This document shows, piece after piece, positions 33,672 through 45,858 of a stretch of 64,000 nt of DNA (the first letter of the stretch is position 1; every line of letters begins with the position of its first letter). The DNA lies in NCBI RefSeq assembly GCF_013374995.1, contig NZ_CP056030.1:5054501-5118500 (forward strand), in the 5' to 3' direction. This DNA comes from Pseudomonas eucalypticola (GTDB lineage Bacteria > Pseudomonadota > Gammaproteobacteria > Pseudomonadales > Pseudomonadaceae). A model generated the notes under the pieces. That model searched no databases. It saw only the letters and a list, made by a program, of their open reading frames with translations, and was not told the DNA's origin. A program made the position numbers and the translations under genes.

Positions 33672-34919
33672 ATGCTGAGCTGGGACGAATTCGACAAAGA
33701 AGAAGGCGAGCAACCCGCCAAAGGCGCCAACGCCGGCCACGCCGCTGAAGCCGCCATGGACAAACTCGACAGCGCCGGTGCCGGTGCTGCCAAGGAAGCC
33801 CGCGCCGTGAGCTCCAACGACTCCGCCGCCGTAGCCCGCGCCAAGGCCGCCCTCGACAAACTCGACGTCGCCGAAGGCCTGGCCGAGCTCGAAGGCTCCG
33901 CTGCCCGCGTTGCCGTTGACGAAAAGCGCATGATCAACTGCCGCGCCGACCTCAACCAACTCGTGCCTTTCAAGTACGACTGGGCCTGGCAAAAGTACCT
34001 GGACGGCTGCGCAAACCACTGGATGCCGCAAGAAGTCAACATGACCGCCGACATCGCCACCTGGCGTAACCCGGAAGGCCTGACCGACGACGAGCGCCGC
34101 ATCGTCATGCGCAACCTGGGCTTCTTCAGCACCGCCGACTCCCTGGTCGCCAACAACCTGGCCCTGGCCGTGTACCGCCTGATCACCAACCCGGAGTGCC
34201 GCCAGTACATCCTGCGCCAGGCCTTCGAAGAGGCGATCCACACCCACGCCTACCAGTACTGCATCGAATCGCTGGGCATGGACGAGGGTGAAATCTTCAA
34301 CATGTACCACGAGATCCCATCGGTCGCCAAAAAGGCAGCCTGGGGCCTGAAATACACCCGTGCCATCTCCGACCCGGAATTCAACACCGGCACCCCGGAA
34401 ACCGACAAAGAACTGCTGCGCAACCTGATCGCCTACTACTGCGTACTGGAAGGCATCTTCTTCTACTGCGGCTTCACCCAGATCCTCTCCATGGGCCGCC
34501 GCAACAAAATGACCGGCGTCGCCGAGCAGTTCCAGTACATCCTGCGCGACGAGTCCATGCACCTGAACTTCGGTATCGACGTGATCAACCAGATCAAGAT
34601 CGAAAACCCGCACTTGTGGGATGCTGAACTGAAGGAAGAGGCTTCGCAGATGATTCTGCAGGGCACTCAGCTGGAGATCGAATACGCTCGGGATACCATG
34701 CCTCGCGGCGTACTGGGCATGAACGCGGCGATGATGGAGGACTACCTCAAGTTCATCGCTAACCGTCGCCTGTCGCAGATTGGTCTGAAGGAAGAGTACC
34801 CAGGGACTACCAACCCGTTCCCTTGGATGAGCGAGATCATGGACTTGAAGAAGGAGAAGAACTTCTTTGAGACTCGGGTTATTGAGTATCAGACGGGTGG
34901 GGCGTTGAGCTGGGATTGA
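33672..34919 (+). CDS. nrdB: class Ia ribonucleotide reductase, beta subunit
   Basis: 415 residues; supplies the tyrosyl radical to NrdA. The di-iron and radical motif [15 protein letters not shown] holds Glu, His and the radical Tyr; a second metal site is RDESMHLNF. An Ala/Lys-rich extension of about 85 residues ([18 protein letters not shown]...) precedes the core and is typical of Pseudomonas NrdB. The C-terminus [10 protein letters not shown] binds NrdA. Its first residues MLSWDEFD echo that tail. Confidence 0.97.
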
Positions 34920-35038
34920 CCCTTTAGCAATGGCAGGCGAACCTCACTTGCAGTAGCCATAACGTTGCTGCAAGCGAAGGTTTATCCTGTCTTTCCATTG
35001 CTCTTGCCAAACCTGTGGGTAGCTAATATTTTCGCAGT

Positions 35039-36154
35039 CTAAATCAGCAGCATTGTTTTTTTATCTAAAAAAACAATTTGCGTCACATGAAATGCTTCGA
35101 TTTTGGTACGAGACCCTTCTGAATAATATAGATCTCCACTAATAAAAATTTTACGCTCTGCCACATGACTTTCATTTAACAAACGGTATTGCTCGGGACC
35201 TACCAAGATCGACACTGAAAAAATCTTTCCATCATACGAAAACCTTATGTGAGCACGTCCATCCACGTCACCTTCTTTCCTACTACATGCTTCGACATAT
35301 GCTGAAAGTCGCTCCAATCTAATACTCGCTGAACTTATCAAACATTTAGCGTACTCTTGAAAAACATGTTTATCCGACTCAAAAAATCCAACCGTTTTCG
35401 GTAACTCTCTGGAAGACAGCTCAGCGAAAGACCAATTAAAGTTAAACTCAATATTAGTGGCTTCCGGTGCAAAAACTCCACTCAGGTCCATGAAGTATTT
35501 ACTTGTAATACCCGACCTTAATAGCTCAGCTTTGAAATCTTCCTGACCAGAGGTTACAACCCCTCTAACTTTCTGCAATCTAGTGGCAAACGACGCATTG
35601 AAAAGCCGTCCTATCGAACTAACCTTTTGCCCTTGCAATAAGCCATTAGAATCTTCAGAACGATACAAAAAAGCATCAAAATTAAAAATAAAACTCCCGG
35701 CGACCGGTGTAGTTAAGCGCAGGCCAGCCAGGTACGCAGCAACCACTTTCCTTTTACCTTTAATGCTAATAGCGGCGCTTGCGGAGTATTTAAACATATC
35801 ATAAATACTAGATACTACCGACAAGCCCGATGAAAGCGATATGGTTCCATCTCCCACCTCACCGCCAAACTCTCTTAACGAAAAATGGTCGTAATCACTA
35901 TTAATAAGCAACTGCTTCATAATTTCGGGATGTGTATCCTCAATTTCAGCAATAACCTCTATCGCTTCGAGCAACATCCCTCCAGACTGCTTATGATCGA
36001 CCAAAGATTCGTCAGGTAGCACTATGGAGTGGCGTTCCCCATGGACTATCTCGTGGATCGAATACCTACCTTCTGCGCATTGGACTAAACTCCAAGCACG
36101 GGTCTCCAGATATCTTACTAGAGCAACATACACTTTGTAATTAGTTGACTTCAC
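35039..36154 (-). CDS. unrecognised island protein, partner of a DUF4365 gene
   Basis: 371 residues from a GTG that overlaps the stop of the DUF4365 gene by four bases (GTGA), so the two are co-translated. It is soluble, with no signal peptide or clear membrane segment; the middle (EVGDGTISLSSGLSVVSSIYDMFKYSASAAISIKGKRK) is a possible helical or lipid-facing stretch. No catalytic motif is recognised. The DNA is much richer in A+T than the flanking core genes, pointing to transfer. Position in a defence island suggests a sensor or effector partner of the nuclease-like protein, but this is inference. Confidence 0.75.
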   Translation of the reverse strand: MKSTNYKVYVALVRYLETRAWSLVQCAEGRYSIHEIVHGERHSIVLPDESLVDHKQSGGMLLEAIEVIAEIEDTHPEIMKQLLINSDYDHFSLREFGGEVGDGTISLSSGLSVVSSIYDMFKYSASAAISIKGKRKVVAAYLAGLRLTTPVAGSFIFNFDAFLYRSEDSNGLLQGQKVSSIGRLFNASFATRLQKVRGVVTSGQEDFKAELLRSGITSKYFMDLSGVFAPEATNIEFNFNWSFAELSSRELPKTVGFFESDKHVFQEYAKCLISSASIRLERLSAYVEACSRKEGDVDGRAHIRFSYDGKIFSVSILVGPEQYRLLNESHVAERKIFISGDLYYSEGSRTKIEAFHVTQIVFLDKKTMLLI

Positions 36155-36714
36155 GGTTTCATTCCATTGAAAAATTCGAGGCCTTTGCTAGCGCCTTCCA
36201 TCATCCATAATAGTGACGCCGCGTCTAGTCGTTGAGAAAGCGGTATCCGAACAGACACCGACGCGGAATTGGAACTGGAAGATAGGCCTCGTAGACTCAT
36301 CCAAAAAGTTCCATATCTTAGCGTTACTCCGAACCTAGAATGCTGCACCCAACTGCTGGATTCCTCCGGTGCAAAATGAACAGCTAGAAATGTAGGAAGG
36401 GGGCTCGGACTCACCAATATATTGTAATTTTCAACTTTCAGAGGATAGACCAACTCATCAGTCTTCATATCTATATAAGAATGAATATCAGTGCATTTTA
36501 GCTGCAATTCAATTTTAGGAGACGAATATTTACCGGGAAAATTCTTCCCCCTTATCGTTATGTCTACCCCATCATTATCAAGCTGGGGCTCATTATAATT
36601 AAAACCAGATGCAGCGCATAATGTCTGAACATACGCCAGGCTCAACAACTCCTTGGAGTGAGCAATAGCAGTACCCCCAACGCCTCTTCCCACCTTTCCC
36701 AAAGCGCAACTCAT
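36151..36714 (-). CDS. DUF4365-like (PD-(D/E)xK nuclease-fold) protein
   Basis: 187 residues starting at an ATG with TAGGGA upstream. The motif order SKELLSLAYVQTLCAASGF, then DNDGVDITI, then KIELQLKCT fits the E...(G)VD...(E/Q)xQxK pattern of DUF4365, a restriction-endonuclease-like domain common in defence loci, for example near prokaryotic Argonautes. The downstream PSPLPTFLAVHFA and WVQHS segments also fit. It lies 109 bp after the deaminase gene on the same strand and overlaps the next gene. Nuclease activity is predicted from D, E and K positions only. Confidence 0.72.
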   Translation of the reverse strand: MSCALGKVGRGVGGTAIAHSKELLSLAYVQTLCAASGFNYNEPQLDNDGVDITIRGKNFPGKYSSPKIELQLKCTDIHSYIDMKTDELVYPLKVENYNILVSPSPLPTFLAVHFAPEESSSWVQHSRFGVTLRYGTFWMSLRGLSSSSNSASVSVRIPLSQRLDAASLLWMMEGASKGLEFFNGMKP

Positions 36715-36823
36715 AAATATTCCCTAGACTCCCACGCTAAATTTTCCGCACAGCCCTAACACCCATGTACAAAACCGCGAAAATCTATAAATAAAACCCT
36801 AAAAAACCAAATTCGCCAAAAGT

Positions 36824-38632
36824 TTATGGTCTTGTTTTGAGTATTCGCTCCAACTCTTCTATCTTCAATTCCAAATCTTTGTTTTTCCGTGCTAGTTCTA
36901 CATTCTCTGCTTTTAAAATTTCACGACTGGGCTTTAAAGGATCAGAGAATTTTGGCAGGTCAAACATGAGCTCCAATTCGTCTTTATAAGGCATGAGTGG
37001 CTGATATAGCTGATAAAATGCGCGCCCCACTGCGCCTCGAAAAAGCTCGAGGATCGGTTTTTGCGCTCCCACGGAAAGTATATGTTCGGTCGCGATCCCA
37101 GGATAGGGGTCTATATAAACAATCTTAGATATACCTAGCTGGTAGGCTTTTTTTGCACAGAGTTCGCACGGGCTGGCCGTAGTGAACAAAACTCCACCTG
37201 CGAGATGCTGCCCTCCGTACTTAGCGATTTGGAGAAATGCGTTTTCTTCTGCATGAAGAGCGCGTGTGTGTACCTGGTTCTTCTCCCCCTCAATTTCGTT
37301 CTGCACCCCCTTAAAACAAAAAGAGAGATTTCGATTACTCGATCCACTTTTAAATATTACTTGCGAGTATTTATCACTCAAAGCTTTTCTGAACTTATGA
37401 TCATTCCTTTCATAGTCGCTATAATCGCTTTCATTTGCCCCTCTTAACAAATCCTCGGCATTTCGCAGCAAGCAAGGAGTTTGTCCTTGCGGAGTGCTAT
37501 TCCAACCCACTGATTTAATGCTGTATCCACTATCAGTAACGACCGCTCCAACTTGTCTTGAAATACAACCTGAACTTTTTTTCGCAGTATAAGCAATTTG
37601 CATACAGTTTTCAATTGAAGTCGGCATCACTAACCCAGGGTGCATCATCAAAGCAAGATACCAAGCCAACTGACCAACCAAATCATTATTGACAAATGGA
37701 TTAATCTTTGAGTTATGGATATGTATATCTGAATTCTCTATGCACTCCTGAATATTTTGCGCAATGAATTTCCCGCCTCCCGTAAGCTTATGGGGGTATT
37801 CTTTATTGTCTAGACGCTCAATATCCGAAAGCTCAAATTTCCGCACCTCCCTTAGACTTTTTACACGTTGAGCCTCAGACGTATTTATAGACATCAAATA
37901 AAAATTCGCGTATCGCCGCTTGAGATAAAACGCCTCGTACGGATTTCTAATAGCGTCAATGACGATACGACAAGCTAAACCCTTCTCTCTTGAAAGCTTG
38001 TTCGCCACCTTAATAATATAATTAATATGCTTGGAAAAGTTAAAGATTTTTAGGGGATTAAAATCTGATACATCCGCAGTGCCTGACGCCCGAATATTAT
38101 CACCTGCTGCCTGATAAAACGCGGTAAATCTTGCCCCTCCTAGCAGATGTTTTAACTCTTCGGTTAGTCGCGGAAGCCTCTCAAAATACAGCCTGCCAAC
38201 TTCACCTATATCTCCCAGATCACCAGCAATCCTCAGATTCTCAATATCGCGAACATCGGCGCGCAATGGCCGCAAAGTCTCTGCAAACTCCTCAAAGGCA
38301 GCCTTCGACATTTCTTGAGCAGCTGCATTCAATGCAAACCTATTGAGACTGGATTCATCGAGTAGACACAAATGATATGTAATTATAGCTCGCGCTTCTA
38401 TCCTATAAAATGGCACCCACTGCTCACCATCCAGATAACGCTTAATGATTCGATGTTTTTTCTGCTCATTAATTGTTAGCCCCTCATAGGACTCGGGAAT
38501 CGCGAATGAATTTTCGCTTAATTTGCTTGCAGCAGTTGTACATCCGGAACCAGTTCGACCCGTCAATCCGATGATTAAAAAATTTTTTGTTTCATTGTAA
38601 ATCCCATTGACAGCCTGAAATGTTTCTTCCAT
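36824..38632 (-). CDS. AvcD-like P-loop / deoxycytidylate deaminase fusion, anti-phage
   Basis: 602 residues from the ATG at 38632 (AGGA upstream). The N-terminal P-loop domain has FLIIGLTGRTGSGCTT (about 18-33), with Cys in place of the usual Walker Lys, and DAIRNPYEAFYLKRRY near 226. The C-terminal deaminase has ISRQVGAVVTDSGY, the zinc HAE (460-462) and PCELC (489-492). This architecture is that of AvcD and related anti-phage dCTP/dCMP deaminases, which drain deoxycytidine nucleotides during infection. The known AvcD is held off by an RNA (AvcI) made just upstream; the 334-bp upstream region here is structured. AT-rich, transferred. Confidence 0.85.
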   Translation of the reverse strand: MEETFQAVNGIYNETKNFLIIGLTGRTGSGCTTAASKLSENSFAIPESYEGLTINEQKKHRIIKRYLDGEQWVPFYRIEARAIITYHLCLLDESSLNRFALNAAAQEMSKAAFEEFAETLRPLRADVRDIENLRIAGDLGDIGEVGRLYFERLPRLTEELKHLLGGARFTAFYQAAGDNIRASGTADVSDFNPLKIFNFSKHINYIIKVANKLSREKGLACRIVIDAIRNPYEAFYLKRRYANFYLMSINTSEAQRVKSLREVRKFELSDIERLDNKEYPHKLTGGGKFIAQNIQECIENSDIHIHNSKINPFVNNDLVGQLAWYLALMMHPGLVMPTSIENCMQIAYTAKKSSGCISRQVGAVVTDSGYSIKSVGWNSTPQGQTPCLLRNAEDLLRGANESDYSDYERNDHKFRKALSDKYSQVIFKSGSSNRNLSFCFKGVQNEIEGEKNQVHTRALHAEENAFLQIAKYGGQHLAGGVLFTTASPCELCAKKAYQLGISKIVYIDPYPGIATEHILSVGAQKPILELFRGAVGRAFYQLYQPLMPYKDELELMFDLPKFSDPLKPSREILKAENVELARKNKDLELKIEELERILKTRP

Positions 38633-38726
38633 GGATATTTTCCTAAAAAGACTGCACAAGCAGAATATGGCACATTCAATTACAAAAAAAAACCATCTCG
38701 CGGCTCTTCCTTCGAAGGAGGTGTTG

Positions 38727-38783
38727 ATGTATTGGCCCATTTCGGCTTATGGTATTGCCGCGCCTAAGAAACGCCTCAAGTAG
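38727..38783 (+). CDS. 18-codon leader ORF with perfect ribosome site
   Basis: AAGGAGGTG lies five bases before ATG, which encodes MYWPISAYGIAAPKKRLK and stops at TAG. The last seven codons contain repeat A, complementary to repeat B downstream. The perfect ribosome site on such a short frame, 184 bp before the BRO-N gene on the same strand, suggests a regulatory leader peptide. Not conserved-checked. Confidence 0.5.
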   Translation: MYWPISAYGIAAPKKRLK

Positions 38784-38960
38784 CGGCCACCCCGCTCCCG
38801 AAAATGCGGTATTTTGTGCCTGCGGCCCCCGGCTGCACGTCTCAAAAGCTCTGCTACGTCGGGAGTGGACTAATACAAGACCCGCAAGGGAAATACGTCC
38901 GGCCTTCTACTTGAGGTTTCTTAACCCCCGACACCTAGCCCTAAGAAAGCTATCAAGTAG
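38764..38960 (+). promoter_or_regulatory. three-part complementary repeat, possible attenuator
   Basis: A (CTAAGAAACGCCTCAAGTAG, 38764-38783), B inverted (CTACTTGAGGTTTCTTAA, 38907-38924) and C (CTAAGAAAGCTATCAAGTAG, 38941-38960). B can pair with A or with C but not both. A is inside the leader ORF; C abuts the AGAGG ribosome site of the BRO-N gene. This is the layout of a translational switch. It fills most of the gap between the BRO-N and deaminase genes. Confidence 0.55.
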
Positions 38961-38966
38961 AGGTAG

Positions 38967-39557
38967 ATGGACATGCCAACCAGTGAAACCGTTTCTGACC
39001 GAAGGCCCCCAGATCAACCACGGAGGCAGTCAGAAGATACGTGCCACATTCCGCTAGTCTTCACCCGCCACAACCGCCCCCTCCACACCCTCTGGCTCGA
39101 ATCCCAAGCCTGGTTCTCAGCCCGCGACCTAGGCCGTCTCATTGGCCGGCACCTCGAATCTCACGCCCTGCGCAAGCTCGACCCCGACCAAACCCGCACC
39201 CTACCGCTACTCTATAACGGCGAAGTCCAGCAAACAGTGATGATCAACGAGTCAGCCGCCTACATGACTCTAGTCCACCATTTCATCCCCGAGAACCGTA
39301 GCCTCAGACGCTGGCTCACCAATGAAGTCATCACTGTCATCCGCGACGAGCACGCCCACCACAACGCTCAAGTTCCAAGCCTCAGCCTTCTTCGCTGGGC
39401 ACAGCTTTCATTGAGCATGCTGCACTGGCAAAACGAACCTTGGATTCGGTTACGTGACGTTCCAGAGATCCTGACGCATCCGCATCTCGCGCAGCCTGGC
39501 TCAAGTCCAACGCTATCACGTTGGCGGCGGGTGCTTGCCAGGTTGATTCACCGCTAG
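38967..39557 (+). CDS. BRO-N domain protein, phage antirepressor-like
   Basis: 196 residues; ATG at 38967, with another ATG two codons later. The BRO-N core is visible: LVFTRHNRPLHTLWL, AWFSARDLGRLIG, HALRKLDPDQTRTLPLL and the SAAYMTLVHHFIPENRSLRRWLTNEV helix. BRO-N domains bind DNA and occur in phage antirepressors and as stand-alone regulators. The C-terminal 60 residues are specific. No other prophage gene is near. The two-hairpin leader upstream suggests post-transcriptional control. Confidence 0.8.
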   Translation: MDMPTSETVSDRRPPDQPRRQSEDTCHIPLVFTRHNRPLHTLWLESQAWFSARDLGRLIGRHLESHALRKLDPDQTRTLPLLYNGEVQQTVMINESAAYMTLVHHFIPENRSLRRWLTNEVITVIRDEHAHHNAQVPSLSLLRWAQLSLSMLHWQNEPWIRLRDVPEILTHPHLAQPGSSPTLSRWRRVLARLIHR

Positions 39558-39566
39558 CCCCAGCCA

Positions 39567-39597
39567 GCATGGAGGTTAGGACTCCCAGCCTCCATGC
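39567..39597. terminator. hairpin between convergent BRO-N and mcrC genes
   Basis: GCATGGAGG (39567-39575) pairs exactly with CCTCCATGC (39589-39597). No T run follows on either side, so termination is uncertain. Confidence 0.4.
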
Positions 39598-39617
39598 CGG
39601 ACCCAATCCAGCGCTAG

Positions 39618-40913
39618 TCAAACGCTTCCGTCTACATGCGACGAACAAAACGGCAGCGAGACCGCATCCCCGCATACCAACCGTCCCAACTCCAAATCAA
39701 ACGGCACCACCCACAGCCTCATCCCGGGCGCGTACTCAAACACCGGCAGCGCATCCTGAAACCGAGCCCGCCGTGGGTAGATCAACACCAAATCCCCCTC
39801 GCCGCCCAGGTATTTATGCCCGTAGGCGAACATCTGATAAAAATCCGCTTGGCCTAGTCCGTAGTGTTTGCCTTTCATCTCGCTATCTAGACGCTTCCAT
39901 TTGGTGTCCATCACCCAACGTTTCCCGTTGTGCTCAACCACCAAGTCCGGCCTCAATTGAAATACCTGCTTGTCCCGATGAATGCACAAATGCTCACCGC
40001 TGACCTGGGCGCTTACGGTTGCACCTGATGCCAGCGTCTCCCGCAGGCAAGCCGCGACATAATTCTCAAACAGCCGCTCCATCGGGAACAGCAAGCTCAT
40101 CCCTCGCCACTCTCCCGCCACCGCGAGAGGTGTCTGCTGCTGGAGAATCAACTCAACCCACGGCTTCACCGGTTGGTAGTGCGCCATTAGGCGATCGTGC
40201 TGCCACTGCTTTAGATCCTGTGCGATATCGCGGCTGACGGGCACATCGTGGAACAGCGACCGAAGCTCATGAGCAAGGCGCCAGTTGCTTGGATCTTGGG
40301 TTGCCTTGCAGACGATCCCCAGCGCTGCCTTAAGTAGCCGATTCTCGGGACGATCAGGCAGAAATACGTCGTGACTGATTTGGAACTGATGGCGACGGCT
40401 CGGCGCCTGGCGCATTTGTCGGACGGTGTTGAGTTGGCCGCGCAGGTACGGCTGTTCTTCTTCGACACGGTGGTAGTCGAACCGAATGCCGCGCTTGACG
40501 AGGTGATCCAGCGCCTCAAGGAAGCGGCCCATCACCCACTCTGTCAACGGGGCATCGAAGCGCTGCAACGATGCTGCACCTACTTCGCGAGCGGGCAAAT
40601 TTAGAGATGCCTGGATCATGCGCCGGAGCAGCGTACGACTCTGCTGAATACAGTCGCCTTGCTCGAAATGCTTAGGCAAAATTTCGATACGCGTGCCGCA
40701 AGGGCTCTCCAGGGCTCCTACGTAGTTATCCAGCTTGAGCCAGCGGCGATCCTGCACTTGCACCAGCGCTGCGCCTGCCTGACTGAACGAGGCGTTAAGG
40801 TCACAGAGCCAATCAAAAACGGTTGGGCTGACCTGGGCTATGTCTAGGTCGGGATGCGCGACATGGCTGGTGGTCAGCCGCGCGTACTCCCGAACCGTCA
40901 GGGTGATGCTCAC
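39618..40913 (-). CDS. mcrC: McrC-type nuclease subunit of a type IV restriction system
   Basis: 431 residues. The N-terminal part is the McrB-contacting region; the C-terminal PD-(D/E)xK domain has QLRPDLVVEHNGKRWVMDTKWKRL near residues 330-355, followed by QADFYQMFAYGHKY. It is the cutting subunit that works with the McrB GTPase. Its GTG/ATG start overlaps the mcrB stop by four bases. Composition is nearer to core genes than the AT-rich genes to the left, suggesting a different transfer event. Confidence 0.92.
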   Translation of the reverse strand: MSITLTVREYARLTTSHVAHPDLDIAQVSPTVFDWLCDLNASFSQAGAALVQVQDRRWLKLDNYVGALESPCGTRIEILPKHFEQGDCIQQSRTLLRRMIQASLNLPAREVGAASLQRFDAPLTEWVMGRFLEALDHLVKRGIRFDYHRVEEEQPYLRGQLNTVRQMRQAPSRRHQFQISHDVFLPDRPENRLLKAALGIVCKATQDPSNWRLAHELRSLFHDVPVSRDIAQDLKQWQHDRLMAHYQPVKPWVELILQQQTPLAVAGEWRGMSLLFPMERLFENYVAACLRETLASGATVSAQVSGEHLCIHRDKQVFQLRPDLVVEHNGKRWVMDTKWKRLDSEMKGKHYGLGQADFYQMFAYGHKYLGGEGDLVLIYPRRARFQDALPVFEYAPGMRLWVVPFDLELGRLVCGDAVSLPFCSSHVDGSV

Positions 40914-42460
40914 CCCTGTTGCTCACTCAACAACTTAATTACCTTTCTCCCTAGATGGCGGGTGTTGTAGGCAGCACCCGATGACCACAGGGTAGGTACG
41001 TCATGCTTCTGCGCCAGCTCGCGCAGTAACGGGAGTACCGGTTTGACCGGCTGGCCATCGCGGTCTATTTCGATGGTGCCTGATGCCAACTGCCGCAAGG
41101 TCAGGTCTTGCCACTGCACTTCCTGAGCACCGTACTGGACTGGCGCAGCCACTTTGAGCGTGTGGTCGAGGATGCCCAGGTACGATTCGATACGCTCGAA
41201 TGCCGGTGTATTGATCTCCCATCGGTCATTGCTCTGGGCGACGACCACTGCATCACCAAACAGGTGATTGATGTCCTGAGTCGGCTGCACCACGAAGCGA
41301 TAGTCAAAGTCCTTGCGTTGATCATTGAGGACCCATTGGATGCGCTGCCAATCCTCAAAGAAGTACTCCTGCAGCAATGGCAAGATTTGCTGCTGGAAGA
41401 TCCCCGCCAGCGTCGGCAAGGTCGGGCTCTTTTTCAGCGGCATGAAATAGGCGTGGCCCAAGCAATGGTCACGGTCGAGCAGAGCCGCAATGCGGGCGTT
41501 GATCACGCCGAGCAACTCGTCGATAGCCACCCCTTCCACCACTACGCCTTCGAGCAACTCGGGATTGGGCGGCACTTCAATGAAGGTGAAGCGGCGGCGC
41601 AGTGCAATGTCCATGGACGCGAGGGAGCGGTCGGCGGTGTTCATCGTGCCAATGAGGTAGACGTTGTTCGGCACACTGAAGCGGTCTTTGGAATACGGCA
41701 GCGTGACTTCCAACGCCTCGTCCGCGCCGGCACGCTTGGAGGGTTCTATCAGGGTGATAAGCTCGCCGAAGATCCGCGAGACATTGCCGCGGTTGATTTC
41801 GTCGATGATTAGGACCTTCGGGGTATCTGTCTTCGGCGAATGTTCATGGTCAAAGAGACCGCCACTTTCGCCGCCGATCATGTGTTCGACCATCGCCGGC
41901 AGTACGTTTTTGTAGCCATTGACGATGAACGGATCGAGGGTTGAATTCGATAGTTTCTTGTCCCAGGACTGGTCACGAAAATCGTTAACCGTTACCTGCT
42001 TTGAAAGTACCGCCTCTGCCATAAAACACAGCATTTCCATGCCGATCTGTAGATGGTTTCCCTTTGGCTTTTCGAACGTCACAACGTCTTTGGAGACGTA
42101 GATGATTTTATAGCCCGTGCCATAGGTATCACCGACCTTGAAGGATCGGTACGCGCCACTGGGTGGTAGGCAGAGGGTTTTGAATACCCCTGGGACCACG
42201 CTGTAACGAAGCTGTCCGGTCTCGTCGCTGTCGGCGCGCAGCCCTTCCACGAAGTCTTCGTAGCTGAAGCTTTGGTGGAAAGTGACGAAGCGAACGTCGC
42301 CCTGGGCGGCAAATTCATCGAACCGGTTTTTGAGGGCTTCGCGGCTTTGGGCGTGGGTCTTGAGGTAGGCAGGATCGAGAATTTCGAGCGCAGCCTCAAT
42401 GGTCGCATAGGTTTTCCCGGTGCCCGGTGGGCCGAAGAAAATTTGGTTGAGCGAAGCCAT
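40910..42460 (-). CDS. mcrB: McrB-type GTPase without the N-terminal DNA-binding domain
   Basis: 516 residues from the ATG at 42460. The AAA+ GTPase starts at once: Walker A FFGPPGTGKTY at residues 8-18, Walker B KVLIIDEINRGN, the McrB signature GTMNTADRSLA, and the sensor region DIALRRRFTF. A domain of about 100 residues (YRSFKVGDTYGTGYKIIYV and on) is inserted between the FVEGL motif and Walker B. E. coli McrB has a separate N-terminal domain reading methylcytosine; here it is missing, so target reading may lie in the insert or elsewhere. Confidence 0.9.
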   Translation of the reverse strand: MASLNQIFFGPPGTGKTYATIEAALEILDPAYLKTHAQSREALKNRFDEFAAQGDVRFVTFHQSFSYEDFVEGLRADSDETGQLRYSVVPGVFKTLCLPPSGAYRSFKVGDTYGTGYKIIYVSKDVVTFEKPKGNHLQIGMEMLCFMAEAVLSKQVTVNDFRDQSWDKKLSNSTLDPFIVNGYKNVLPAMVEHMIGGESGGLFDHEHSPKTDTPKVLIIDEINRGNVSRIFGELITLIEPSKRAGADEALEVTLPYSKDRFSVPNNVYLIGTMNTADRSLASMDIALRRRFTFIEVPPNPELLEGVVVEGVAIDELLGVINARIAALLDRDHCLGHAYFMPLKKSPTLPTLAGIFQQQILPLLQEYFFEDWQRIQWVLNDQRKDFDYRFVVQPTQDINHLFGDAVVVAQSNDRWEINTPAFERIESYLGILDHTLKVAAPVQYGAQEVQWQDLTLRQLASGTIEIDRDGQPVKPVLPLLRELAQKHDVPTLWSSGAAYNTRHLGRKVIKLLSEQQG

Positions 42461-42691
42461 TGGGGAACATCCTTGTAGGAAAATTCCTAGCACGTTAGCC
42501 AGATTGCCAGCATTGGTAAACCCTCCCCAACTGCCTGCCCCCTGCCTCGATAATCTGAAACGACTGACCTGAACACGAGATTTTTCTCAAGTGCATCGAT
42601 GCTTGAATAAGGCAGGCCATCTCGCCATACCTCCAGCAGGTTTAAAGACTTGAATATTCCTCGCCTCACAGCCATGCAATATGCCACTCTA

Positions 42692-42708
42692 GTAAACCCA
42701 TGGTTTAC
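42692..42708. promoter_or_regulatory. inverted repeat before abiEi, probable operator
   Basis: GTAAACC, CAT, GGTTTAC, framed by GCCA and TGGC on either side. AbiEi antitoxins of known systems repress their own operon by binding inverted repeats in the promoter; this site lies 17-33 bp before the preferred abiEi start. Confidence 0.5.
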
Positions 42709-42724
42709 GGATATGGCGATTAGC

Positions 42725-43642
42725 ATGGCTCAGGACCCCGCAAAAACTGCATTTTATAAACTGAGCTTGCTCGCCCAAGCGGTGCCAGACGATCTGGTCC
42801 TTCCCAGGGAATGGCTGCTTCAACAAGGCTTTACGGATGATAACCTCACCGGCTACGTTCGCTCGGGCTACCTAAGCCGCGTTGGCCGGGCGCTGTACGC
42901 TAAGCCACAAGCTGGTAGGTCCTGGTTGTTCGGGGAAAAGCAAAAAGACGAAGGCGCATTACCTACCGCCATTGCGCCCTGGAAGATCGCACTTTCTTCT
43001 TCACTTCTGACGGAACCAACCCCGCTTGCGGTTGCTGGTTATAGCGCTTTGGAAGTCCGAAACCTAGCGCACTTCCACAGTAACCAGCCTCTTCGCGAGA
43101 TCTGGGTGACCGGCCCTAAAGCCCTACCCCGATGGGTTGCACAAATGAACAGTGTTGATTGGCGGCTAATACCGGCCGGTAAGCTATTCGTGGATGCGGC
43201 CGGCATGCCGACTGATCAACAGCTCTTCAACCTCGACACGGATGAACTCGACCACACCCTGCAAATGAGAGGTTTCGAGGCCATTGGACGAGACTCAAAT
43301 AGATCTTGGATAGTTGCATCCACACCTGAGCGCGCCTTGCTCGAATGGGCAAGCCAATTGAATACCGAGGCGGATTGGCGGCATTTCTATGAGGTAATGG
43401 AGGGGGTACCGTCGCTGCGCCCAACGCTACTTCGCATGCTGCTTGCTCGCTGCAAATCGGTCAAAGCCAAGCGTGTATTTCTCTGGATGGGTAAGCAGCT
43501 TGATGCTAGCTGGTATCACGCCCTCAAGCGGGACATGAGCGGCATCGACCTGGGCAAGGGGAAGCGGCAACTCATCCCTGGCGGGGCACTTGATACCGAA
43601 TATCAGATCACGGTAGTGCGGGAGATTTCTGATGGCGTCTGA
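42725..43642 (+). CDS. abiEi: AbiEi antitoxin of a type IV toxin-antitoxin pair
   Basis: 305 residues. The N-terminal winged helix has KTAFYKLSLLAQAVPDDLVLPREWL and GYVRSGYLSRVGRALYA, and the C-terminal part has the AbiEi antitoxin region PLAVAGYSALEVRNLAHF and ASTPERALLEWAS. It both represses the operon and neutralises AbiEii. Start choice is uncertain: ATG 42725 fits the family N-terminus; 42713 or TTG 42650 would include or abut the inverted repeat. Overlaps the toxin gene by 11 bases. Confidence 0.88.
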   Translation: MAQDPAKTAFYKLSLLAQAVPDDLVLPREWLLQQGFTDDNLTGYVRSGYLSRVGRALYAKPQAGRSWLFGEKQKDEGALPTAIAPWKIALSSSLLTEPTPLAVAGYSALEVRNLAHFHSNQPLREIWVTGPKALPRWVAQMNSVDWRLIPAGKLFVDAAGMPTDQQLFNLDTDELDHTLQMRGFEAIGRDSNRSWIVASTPERALLEWASQLNTEADWRHFYEVMEGVPSLRPTLLRMLLARCKSVKAKRVFLWMGKQLDASWYHALKRDMSGIDLGKGKRQLIPGGALDTEYQITVVREISDGV

Positions 43643-44540
43643 GGCCTATAAAGCGCAAGTCCGGCTACTGGTGCAGGTATTGAATGCCTTCCGCGGTTGC
43701 GACGTGTTTGCTCTAAAGGGCGGCACCGCGATCAACCTATTCCTGCAGAACCTGCCTCGCCTATCGGTGGATATTGATCTGAATTTTCTTCCTGGGCTCG
43801 AATACGCCAAAGCCTTACCCATGATCGACGACGAGTTGTCTGCGATAGCGATCCGAATACAGAAAATCGCGGGGGTAATGAAGGTAGAAAGGCCGCCAAA
43901 TGACGGCCTAAAGCGTACAGTGTTTGGCAAAGGCGCCCGAGTGAAAATCGAGGTGAATCCGGTTATACGGGGCATCGTTTATCCTGCCACGGTCCTACCA
44001 GTTCAAGGCAACGTTGAGCATGCCTTCGGTTATGCCGAGATGCTTGTAGCCAGCAGCGACGATGTGTACGGCGGTAAGCTGGTTGCTGCCCTCGACCGTC
44101 AGCATCCTCGCGACCTTTACGATGTGCGATTGATGATGGACTCTGGCTTGGTCAGCGACCATCTGATGAAAGCTTTTGCTGTCTATCTATGCTCCTCGAA
44201 CGCACCCATGAGCGAGATTCTCGCCCCTCGCTTCAAAGACCTTACCGATACCTATAAAAATCAGTTTATCGGGATGGTCGAGCAACCTATTAGCTTGCAA
44301 CGCCTGGAGGAAACGCGAATAGAAATGGTCGAAATGATCCAGACAAAATTGGGTGACGCAGAGAAAAAATTCATCATGAGTGTTCAGCGGCGAGAGCCGG
44401 ATTGGGAAGTTCTGGGCATTGATGGACTGGCTGGTTTACCGTCGGTCGGGTTCAAGGTCGCCAACCTCAATAGGATGAGGTCTGAAGCATACGCGGCCGA
44501 GAGTCAGGCTCTGGAATCGCTCCTCCAAACGTTTAGCTAG
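43632..44540 (+). CDS. abiEii: AbiEii nucleotidyltransferase toxin
   Basis: 302 residues. The nucleotidyltransferase signature is ALKGGTAINLF (GGT at 30-32) with VDIDLNF (Asp 47 and 49) completing the active site, and KIEVNP and the DVYGGKLVAALDRQHPRDLYDV block follow. AbiEii proteins arrest growth, in studied cases by modifying tRNA, and give abortive phage defence. Translation is coupled to the antitoxin by an 11-base overlap. Confidence 0.92.
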   Translation: MASEAYKAQVRLLVQVLNAFRGCDVFALKGGTAINLFLQNLPRLSVDIDLNFLPGLEYAKALPMIDDELSAIAIRIQKIAGVMKVERPPNDGLKRTVFGKGARVKIEVNPVIRGIVYPATVLPVQGNVEHAFGYAEMLVASSDDVYGGKLVAALDRQHPRDLYDVRLMMDSGLVSDHLMKAFAVYLCSSNAPMSEILAPRFKDLTDTYKNQFIGMVEQPISLQRLEETRIEMVEMIQTKLGDAEKKFIMSVQRREPDWEVLGIDGLAGLPSVGFKVANLNRMRSEAYAAESQALESLLQTFS

Positions 44541-44715
44541 ATGCCGAGCCGGCAAAGAATACGGACCCAGCGTAGTAAGCAGCTGTCAAACGGCATTGCC
44601 CGTGTATACCTCCTTGATTTCCTGTGCACTGGCACATCTGCGGCCCCGTACCAGCGAGCATCGAAAATAAACAGCTCGCTGGCAAGCCGCCCCCTGCGGT
44701 CGGCATAACTGCCCT

Positions 44716-45858
44716 TCAGGGCGCTACCACCACCCCCTGCCCCACATCCACCTCGTCCCACTGCAAAATGCCCTCGCTTCTCGCCGTGGCAATCAACTGT
44801 GCCCTCACGTTCCGGGCAGTAGCTTTTTTGCCTGAGGCGCCGATCGCTTCCCACCACAATGCCGCCACCCCGGCCACATGCGGGCAGGCCATGCTGCTGC
44901 CGCTCATGGTCTTGAGGCCGCCACCCGTGCGTGCCGAGGTGATGCCTACGCCGGGTGCCGACAAGGTGGCCATGGTGTTGGAAAAATCCGCTACCCGCAG
45001 CCCGCCGCCGCTGGCGCGGCCCACGGCGGCCACGGAGATGACGTCGTCCGCCGCGGCGGGCAGGGAGGCGGCGAGGCGGTATTCGGGGTCGTCGCCGCGG
45101 CGGCTTTCGTTGCCGGCTGCGGCGACGACCAACGCGCTGGTGCCGAAGGCGGCGCGGGCTTTGGTCATGCCCATGATGGCGTCGAACATGCGCAGGTTGC
45201 CGCGGTAGGTTTCCAAGGCTTCGGAAGTGGCTAACTGCACCGGCCAGCCTTCGCTGGTCCGGCTTTTGACCATGCCGGGGAAGTCGAAGCCCAACGACAT
45301 GGAGATGTGCGCACGCTGTTCCAATGCCCACAGCATGCCGTTGAAGATCATTTCCGAGCTGCCGCCACCTTTGTTGTCCAGTACTTTGCCGATCAACGCA
45401 CGGCTGATGCCGGGGGCGACGCCGATGCGGGTGGCCAGGCCACGGCCGAAGATGACCCCGGCGCAATGGGTACCATGGCCCAGAGCATCGCCGTTACCTG
45501 AACCGCTGAAGTCTTTCTCGACCAGGTCCACGCCGGCGAAGGCTGGGTGCTCGGCGTCGATGCCCGTGTCGAGCACGGCCACAGTAACGCCGTTGCCCGT
45601 GTAACGGCTGTGTCCGGCAACCCTTTCAACCCCCCAGGGCTCAGCACGGGTCTCGGCTTTAGCCGCCTTGGGCTTGATCAGGCGGGTTGGCATCTTTGGC
45701 GCCACCAGGGCTACCTCGGGCTCGGCCACGAGTTCGGCCAACGCGTGGGCCGGAACCCGTTCCACGGTGAGGGATGGATCAGTTGCAACGGCCCTGACCC
45801 CAGCCAAGCCATGGCTGGCAGTCGGGATTTCACGGCGCAGGATGATGTACTCTTTCAT
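44716..45858 (-). CDS. subtilisin-like S8 serine protease, no signal peptide
   Basis: 380 residues. The triad is Asp97 (AVLDTGID), His128 (GHGTHCAG) and Ser322 (SGSSMACPHVAG), with oxyanion Asn250 (AAAGNES). A short N-terminal segment (EYIILRREIPTASHGLAG) resembles an inhibitor-I9-type propeptide, but no export signal precedes it, so it is probably cytoplasmic or leaves by another path. It lies at the right edge of the defence island and could be island cargo or core; GC is high like the core. Confidence 0.88.
   Translation of the reverse strand: MKEYIILRREIPTASHGLAGVRAVATDPSLTVERVPAHALAELVAEPEVALVAPKMPTRLIKPKAAKAETRAEPWGVERVAGHSRYTGNGVTVAVLDTGIDAEHPAFAGVDLVEKDFSGSGNGDALGHGTHCAGVIFGRGLATRIGVAPGISRALIGKVLDNKGGGSSEMIFNGMLWALEQRAHISMSLGFDFPGMVKSRTSEGWPVQLATSEALETYRGNLRMFDAIMGMTKARAAFGTSALVVAAAGNESRRGDDPEYRLAASLPAAADDVISVAAVGRASGGGLRVADFSNTMATLSAPGVGITSARTGGGLKTMSGSSMACPHVAGVAALWWEAIGASGKKATARNVRAQLIATARSEGILQWDEVDVGQGVVVAP

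What the first reader, a model, noticed from the sequence alone, without database searches (positions are those of the whole stretch)
35039..38632. Deaminase + DUF4365 + unknown protein: candidate composite anti-phage operon
Seen: an AvcD-type P-loop/deaminase fusion (HAE, PCxxC), a 109-bp gap, then a DUF4365-like nuclease gene overlapping a 371-codon gene, all on one strand in AT-rich DNA between core nrdB and McrBC/AbiE. Known: AvcD-family deaminases deplete dCTP/dCMP in phage infection and usually pair only with the AvcI RNA. Inference: here the deaminase may be combined with a nuclease-like module, giving nucleotide depletion plus nucleic-acid attack, or two systems sit side by side.
Basis: partly seen in the sequence, partly recalled or inferred. 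Interest (0 to 1): 0.82.

Follow-up and report, generated by a model that had tools for sequence, protein, structure and literature searches.

The report
Two neighbouring anti-phage defence modules
A bacterial chromosome carries, side by side, a gene that probably destroys DNA building blocks during virus attack and a separate two-gene nuclease module; they look like two independent defences parked in the same hotspot, not one new combined system.

Summary
In detail: on the minus strand lie a P-loop/deaminase fusion (36824-38632), a 109-bp gap, a DUF4365 gene (36151-36714) and a 371-codon gene (35039-36154) overlapping it by 4 bp. The composite-system reading is not supported. The deaminase matches PADLOC 'dCTPase'; the other two match PADLOC's candidate pair PDC-M02A/PDC-M02B. 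The modules occur apart elsewhere: 0 of 20 other deaminase stretches hold M02 genes, 0 of 22 other M02 stretches (1.8-17 kb) hold a deaminase, and 8 of 9 M02-bearing genomes tested lack a relative of it. In two relatives of the same genus a 64% identical deaminase sits at this very site beside nrdB without M02. Added here: the DUF4365 model matches the DREN nuclease of SPARDA with catalytic D51/Q71/K73 in place; M02B has an N-terminal part, a middle part that one cyanobacterial version lacks, and a C-terminal OB-like fold. This suggests a DREN nuclease controlled by an OB-fold partner instead of an Argonaute. Co-transcription across the gap stays open. In passing: the neighbouring BRO-N gene has a conserved leader containing sRNA-Xcc1 that can form two mutually exclusive hairpins.

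The parts
36824..38632 (-). anti-phage dCTP deaminase-type gene, 602 aa: degenerate P-loop GRTGSGCTT, deaminase HAE and PCELC
   Evidence: PADLOC dCTPase E 9.3e-142; Pfam dCMP_cyt_deam_1 1.2e-16; motifs in 109 (P-loop), 120 (HAE) and 119 (PCELC) of the 120 homologues listed of 4818 found
36715..36823 (-). 109-bp spacer; AT-rich, modest imperfect hairpin on the minus strand, no terminator or promoter match in simple scans
   Evidence: z -2.91, 2 of 200 shuffles fold as well
36151..36714 (-). PDC-M02A: stand-alone DUF4365/DREN PD-(D/E)XK nuclease, 187 aa; D51, Q71, K73, and E22
35039..36154 (-). PDC-M02B: 371-aa partner; N-terminal part, middle part, C-terminal OB-like fold (about 275-366); GTG start overlaps the stop of M02A
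34920..35005 (.). stable imperfect palindrome between convergent nrdB and M02B, perhaps a two-way transcription stop; single copy in the genome
   Evidence: z -7.22 and -4.75
33672..34919 (+). nrdB, conserved flank of the insertion spot
38760..38966 (+). conserved leader of the BRO-N gene, containing sRNA-Xcc1 (38858-38940); other flank of the spot
38967..39557 (+). BRO-N domain gene, 196 aa (a second in-frame ATG at 38973 may be the real start)
   Evidence: Pfam Bro-N 3.3e-10

Best explanation
Two separate anti-phage modules lie next to each other in a variable spot between nrdB and a BRO-N gene. Module 1 is an anti-phage dCTP deaminase: on infection it would turn dC nucleotides into dU nucleotides and starve phage DNA synthesis. 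Module 2 is the PDC-M02 pair: M02A is a DREN-type (DUF4365) nuclease, M02B an OB-fold protein that most likely senses a nucleic acid and switches M02A on. Shown here: gene identities by profile, conserved active-site residues, pairing of M02A with a second gene elsewhere, and independence of the two modules in the genomes sampled. Inferred: nucleotide depletion, nuclease activity, sensing by M02B. M02A and M02B very probably act as one system; the deaminase does not need them.
Confidence: 0.8

Rival explanations
1. Composite operon: the three genes are transcribed together and the deaminase and nuclease act in one response, for instance dU in DNA or stalled forks made by the deaminase are then attacked by M02A/M02B.
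For: Same strand, 109-bp gap without terminator or promoter match, similar GC.
Against: No co-occurrence in 20 of 20 deaminase and 22 of 22 M02 stretches; a related deaminase stands at the same site without the pair in two relatives; 8 of 9 M02 genomes lack a relative of the deaminase.
Confidence: 0.07
2. The M02 pair is a toxin-antitoxin-like unit (a variant of module 2, not exclusive of two modules): M02A a toxic nuclease held silent by M02B and freed on infection.
For: Tight overlap with M02A first, nuclease fold of M02A, pairs found on plasmids.
Against: M02B is large, with an OB-like fold and a middle part missing in one short relative, more like a sensor than a small antitoxin; in SPARDA the DREN domain alone is inactive (PMC12205087, passages).
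Confidence: 0.2
3. The deaminase is a full AvcID type III toxin-antitoxin system whose RNA antitoxin lies just upstream (compatible with two modules).
For: AvcD-type deaminase; in AvcID the RNA AvcI inhibits AvcD (PMC10511110, passages). A short GCCATTT stretch is shared upstream of the deaminase in three relatives (L046, L047, L048).
Against: That stretch is not in the window; the 116 nt upstream do not fold better than shuffles (z 0.46, 127 of 200) and six aligned upstream regions share only three invariant columns. The sRNA-Xcc1 match upstream belongs to the BRO-N leader on the other strand.
Confidence: 0.25

Closest known systems
Anti-phage dCTP deaminase / AvcD (PADLOC dCTPase, NCBIfam NF041025)
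   Same: Match over most of the protein, degenerate P-loop, HAE and PCELC motifs
   Different: 385.3 bits against the NCBI cut-off of 400; longer (602 aa against a 437-position model); no AvcI-like RNA recognised
PDC-M02 (PADLOC candidate pair M02A + M02B)
   Same: Both proteins match over most of their length; same order and overlap as elsewhere
   Different: Nothing seen that sets it apart; its closest M02B homologues are 40-46% identical to it, the others in the alignment 14-19%
SPARDA (short Argonaute with DREN-APAZ)
   Same: Nuclease domain fold and catalytic D/Q/K
   Different: No APAZ domain on the nuclease chain, no Argonaute gene among the neighbours scanned; an OB-fold partner instead

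Membership tests
Anti-phage dCTP deaminase (PADLOC dCTPase) | Match to the family model over most of the protein | tested here: met
   PDLC02373 E 9.3e-142, residues 7-582 against model positions 143-546 of 630
Anti-phage dCTP deaminase (PADLOC dCTPase) | Zinc deaminase motifs HAE and PCxxC with an N-terminal P-loop-like motif | tested here: met
   HAE 120, PCELC 119, GRTGSGC[ST]T 109 of the 120 listed homologues, window copy included
NCBIfam NF041025 equivalog | Score over the curated cut-off of 400 bits | tested here: not met
   385.3 bits over the whole model; so not filed as this equivalog
AvcID type III toxin-antitoxin | Inhibitory RNA AvcI encoded with the deaminase | tested here: inconclusive
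   no conserved or unusually stable RNA seen upstream; AvcI itself was not available as a model
Anti-phage dCTP deaminase (PADLOC dCTPase) | dC deamination and protection from phages | not testable with these tools
   needs experiment
PDC-M02 | M02A (DUF4365) protein | tested here: met
   PDLC04297 E 3.8e-48
PDC-M02 | M02B protein encoded next to it | tested here: met
   PDLC04302 E 5.2e-46, 4-bp overlap
PDC-M02 | Anti-phage activity | not testable with these tools
   needs experiment; a search for the name PDC-M02 gave 0 papers
SPARDA | DREN (DUF4365) nuclease domain | tested here: met
SPARDA | APAZ domain on the nuclease chain | tested here: not met
   M02A has 187 aa; the nuclease match spans 16-179; DREN-APAZ has DREN 1-146 and APAZ 161-442 (PMC12205087, passages)
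SPARDA | Short Argonaute in the same operon | tested here: not met
   no Piwi domain among the nine proteins of 35039-45858 scanned
Composite deaminase + M02 operon | Recurrent adjacency in other genomes | tested here: not met
   0 of 20 deaminase and 0 of 22 M02 stretches

The most novel reading that the evidence does not exclude
M02 is a guide-free DREN immune nuclease: the OB-fold protein M02B detects single-stranded DNA of replicating phages and gathers M02A into an active form, a way to control DREN other than Argonaute; in this strain it has become coupled to the deaminase, whose dCTP depletion stalls phage forks and feeds single-stranded DNA to M02B.
Probability: 0.06. Interest if true: 0.75.

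Novelty: new member of a known kind. Interest (0 to 1): 0.3.

Why it matters
It shows how adjacency in a defence hotspot can imitate an operon: a related deaminase occupies this site without the pair in two relatives. It also gives PDC-M02, for which I found no experiment in print, an anatomy that can be tested (DREN nuclease plus OB-fold partner), and so a prediction of which residues and which trigger to test.

Tried and rejected
Composite operon: rejected on co-occurrence. sRNA-Xcc1 as the deaminase's RNA antitoxin: rejected, because the match lies on the other strand and belongs to the conserved BRO-N leader. M02B on plasmids and phages by tblastn: no match, although plasmid copies exist, so this probe is weak. 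A single-protein scan of genome contigs for M02B confirmed nothing and the alignment scan gave only P. composti. The nrdB-M02B palindrome as a dispersed repeat: rejected, one copy in the genome. Target-site duplications round the M02 pair: none convincing. Solved structures by sequence: none for M02A, one insignificant for M02B (E 0.93), T4-type dCMP deaminases for the deaminase. The PDB lists show APAZ or any other fold for M02B residues 1-270 nowhere; that part was barely tested and this proves no absence. BFVD gives two matches at E 0.001 or better, the best an uncharacterised protein of Leptospira phage LE1 over the whole length (E 1e-15, TM 0.49, rmsd 15.8); not followed. M02A found only two remote Mycobacterium prophage hits among phages.

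Rows dropped or not examined. In one search the raw tally is 297 of 298 genomes at E 0.001, because ordinary deaminases share the zinc motif; I kept the 15 matches under 1e-100 (14 genomes). One is the window's own; 11 of the other 14 were fetched with about 8 kb on each side (G071 as L048); the other three (G033, G239, G013) were seen only with 1.5 kb flanks and hold no M02 there. Of 23 plasmid records with M02A I opened 12. Among the eight genome loci, the partners in L126, L127, L128 and L132 were confirmed by tblastn and those in L129 and L131 by PADLOC; L130 and L133 were judged by size and place only. One deaminase hit in the M02 stretches (L067, E 0.79) was discounted. For the leader alignment A9 I used 11 of the 20 loci with the start motif: eight of a shorter type and one duplicate (L102 is the same place as L139) were left out; the 29 loci L134-L162 were the best-scoring ones, not a random draw.

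Full report
What is there. The window lies in a Pseudomonas genome (G000): G279, listed as of the same genus, has a contig of exactly the length of contig 30 of P. composti LY1 and the same genes at the same places. Between nrdB and a McrBC/AbiE stretch, three minus-strand genes of low GC follow each other: deaminase 36824-38632, DUF4365 gene 36151-36714, and a 371-codon gene 35039-36154 whose GTG start overlaps the stop codon of the gene before.

Identities. The deaminase matches PADLOC dCTPase (E 9.3e-142, residues 7-582) and the NCBI anti-phage dCTP deaminase model at 385.3 bits, just under its cut-off of 400. Its motifs are those of its relatives: among the 120 homologues listed of 4818 found, HAE occurs in 120, PCELC in 119 and the lysine-less P-loop GRTGSGC[ST]T in 109. 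The other two genes match PADLOC's PDC-M02A and PDC-M02B. PMC12988326 describes PDCs as candidates found by 'guilt by embedding' and mostly without experimental validation (passages; M02 was not named in them). No paper in the library holds the name PDC-M02. PADLOC candidates can fail: for two others no defence activity was found in one native host (PMC12409345, passages).

Are they one system? Three kinds of test say no. First, distribution: the closest M02B model hits 2 of 298 family genomes, and dCTPase hits with E below 1e-100 stand in 14 of the same 298 (the raw tally of 297 at E 0.001 comes from ordinary deaminases that share the zinc motif); only the window's own genome has both. In the genus, 11 of 249 genomes have a relative of the deaminase at E 1e-100 or better, this one included. 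Second, neighbourhood: 20 of 20 deaminase stretches with about 8 kb on each side (10 with 42-64% identity, 10 remote, one of these this genome's own second copy) show no M02A or M02B by tblastn. Twenty-two of 22 M02 stretches (1.8-17 kb) show no deaminase apart from a discounted hit at E 0.79. Eight of nine M02-bearing genomes have no relative of the deaminase at E 1e-10; five of the nine are at least 90% complete and at most 5% contaminated, and none of these five has one. The ninth, G934, has a remote one (28%) on another contig. Third, the site: in two of the three closest relatives found (L046 and L048, 64%; not L047) the deaminase lies convergent to nrdB with no gene between, and in L048 the BRO-N gene follows as in the window. 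So the M02 pair came in addition at this place, or was lost there in the relatives.

What stays open. The scans put no terminator and no promoter-like site in the 109-bp gap (the numbers of such sites in the whole stretch are no higher than in shuffles, so the scan says little either way). The gap has a modest hairpin on the minus strand (z -2.91). Transcription of M02 from the deaminase promoter is possible, and its meaning cannot be read from sequence.

The M02 pair. M02A is followed directly by a second gene in P. composti (L005), G761 (L067), 8 of 8 loci outside this genome found with the M02A profile in 398 phylum genomes (7 genomes) and 12 of 12 plasmid stretches opened of 23 records hit, from cyanobacteria to Streptomyces. 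For six of the eight genome loci the partner was confirmed as M02B by tblastn or PADLOC. In the plasmid set six partners are long (about 376-402 aa) and six are 178-181 aa. The one short partner that was scanned (L111) matches M02B models at about their first 90 positions and, in a second stretch, near positions 287-361, so the middle part is missing there. One M02 locus (L129) lies next to an open frame that looks like a type I specificity subunit (my reading of its sequence, not tested).

The spot. In the 13 same-genus relatives fetched, DNA similarity to the window ends with nrdB, apart from the BRO-N region and scattered short or distant matches. A BRO-N relative lies within the fetched stretch in 9 of 13, partial in some, from about 150 bp (L101) to about 10 kb (L102) after nrdB. 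Of these 13 I scanned the first gene after nrdB in two, L105 and L107: both match PADLOC candidates (PDC-S59, E 5.7e-30; PDC-M28C, E 1.3e-7). It looks like a place where defence genes collect.

A structured leader. The sRNA-Xcc1 match (67.9 bits; only copy found in the genome) is part of a leader of about 208 nt in front of the BRO-N gene. Its start motif was found in 20 of 35 BRO-N loci examined, one place counted twice. In 11 aligned leaders of the longer type one sequence occurs three times, the middle copy reversed; copies 1:2 and 2:3 can both pair but not together. Both pairings show changes on both sides: 5 pairs and 10 cells and 4 pairs and 9 cells, against at most 2 pairs in slid controls. 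Against it: for the second pairing 79 of 500 shuffles also reach 4 pairs, and in the count of further pair types shuffles do as well (89 of 500 for the first, 497 of 500 for the second). I chose the helices by eye on these same sequences, which favours them over slid versions. Copy 3 touches the AGAGG before the start codon. In Xanthomonas integron cassettes sRNA-Xcc1 lies upstream of symE (PMC12444791, passages). In P. syringae Bro-N is a predicted toxin not demonstrated by experiment (PMC8790059, passages). An RNA switch of BRO-N translation is my inference.

Verdict. Ordinary as a locus: two neighbours of known or already listed kinds. The anatomy of PDC-M02 and the BRO-N leader are the parts worth further work.

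Noticed in passing
window 38760-38966 (+): Conserved leader of the BRO-N gene that contains sRNA-Xcc1 (RF02221): three covarying copies of a short sequence allow two mutually exclusive hairpins, one of which touches the ribosome-binding site. Looks like an RNA switch or attenuator; start motif at 20 of 35 BRO-N loci examined, one place counted twice.
   Followed up: partly
window 38967-39557 (+): BRO-N gene family present in 138 of 249 genus genomes at E 1e-10, up to seven matches in one, and within the fetched stretch after nrdB in 9 of 13 relatives; it flanks variable cargo.
   Followed up: partly
L061 (G000:C1:5509332-5510771): The same genome holds a second, remote dCTP deaminase (about 27-28% identical to the window copy over some 330 residues; E 1.3e-168 to the PADLOC model).
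   Followed up: no
window 34920-35005: Unusually stable imperfect palindrome between the convergent genes nrdB and M02B (z -7.22 on the plus strand), single copy in the genome.
   Followed up: partly
L111, L114-L118: Cyanobacterial plasmids carry a gene of 178-181 aa in place of the long M02B next to M02A; the one scanned (L111) matches only the N-terminal and C-terminal (OB) parts of M02B models.
   Followed up: partly
window 44716-45858 (-): Subtilase-family protein (PADLOC 'subtilase' E 5.2e-20) next to AbiE; in L136 a BRO-N gene lies beside an AbiEi relative (48%) and an 89% identical stretch of this subtilase.
   Followed up: no
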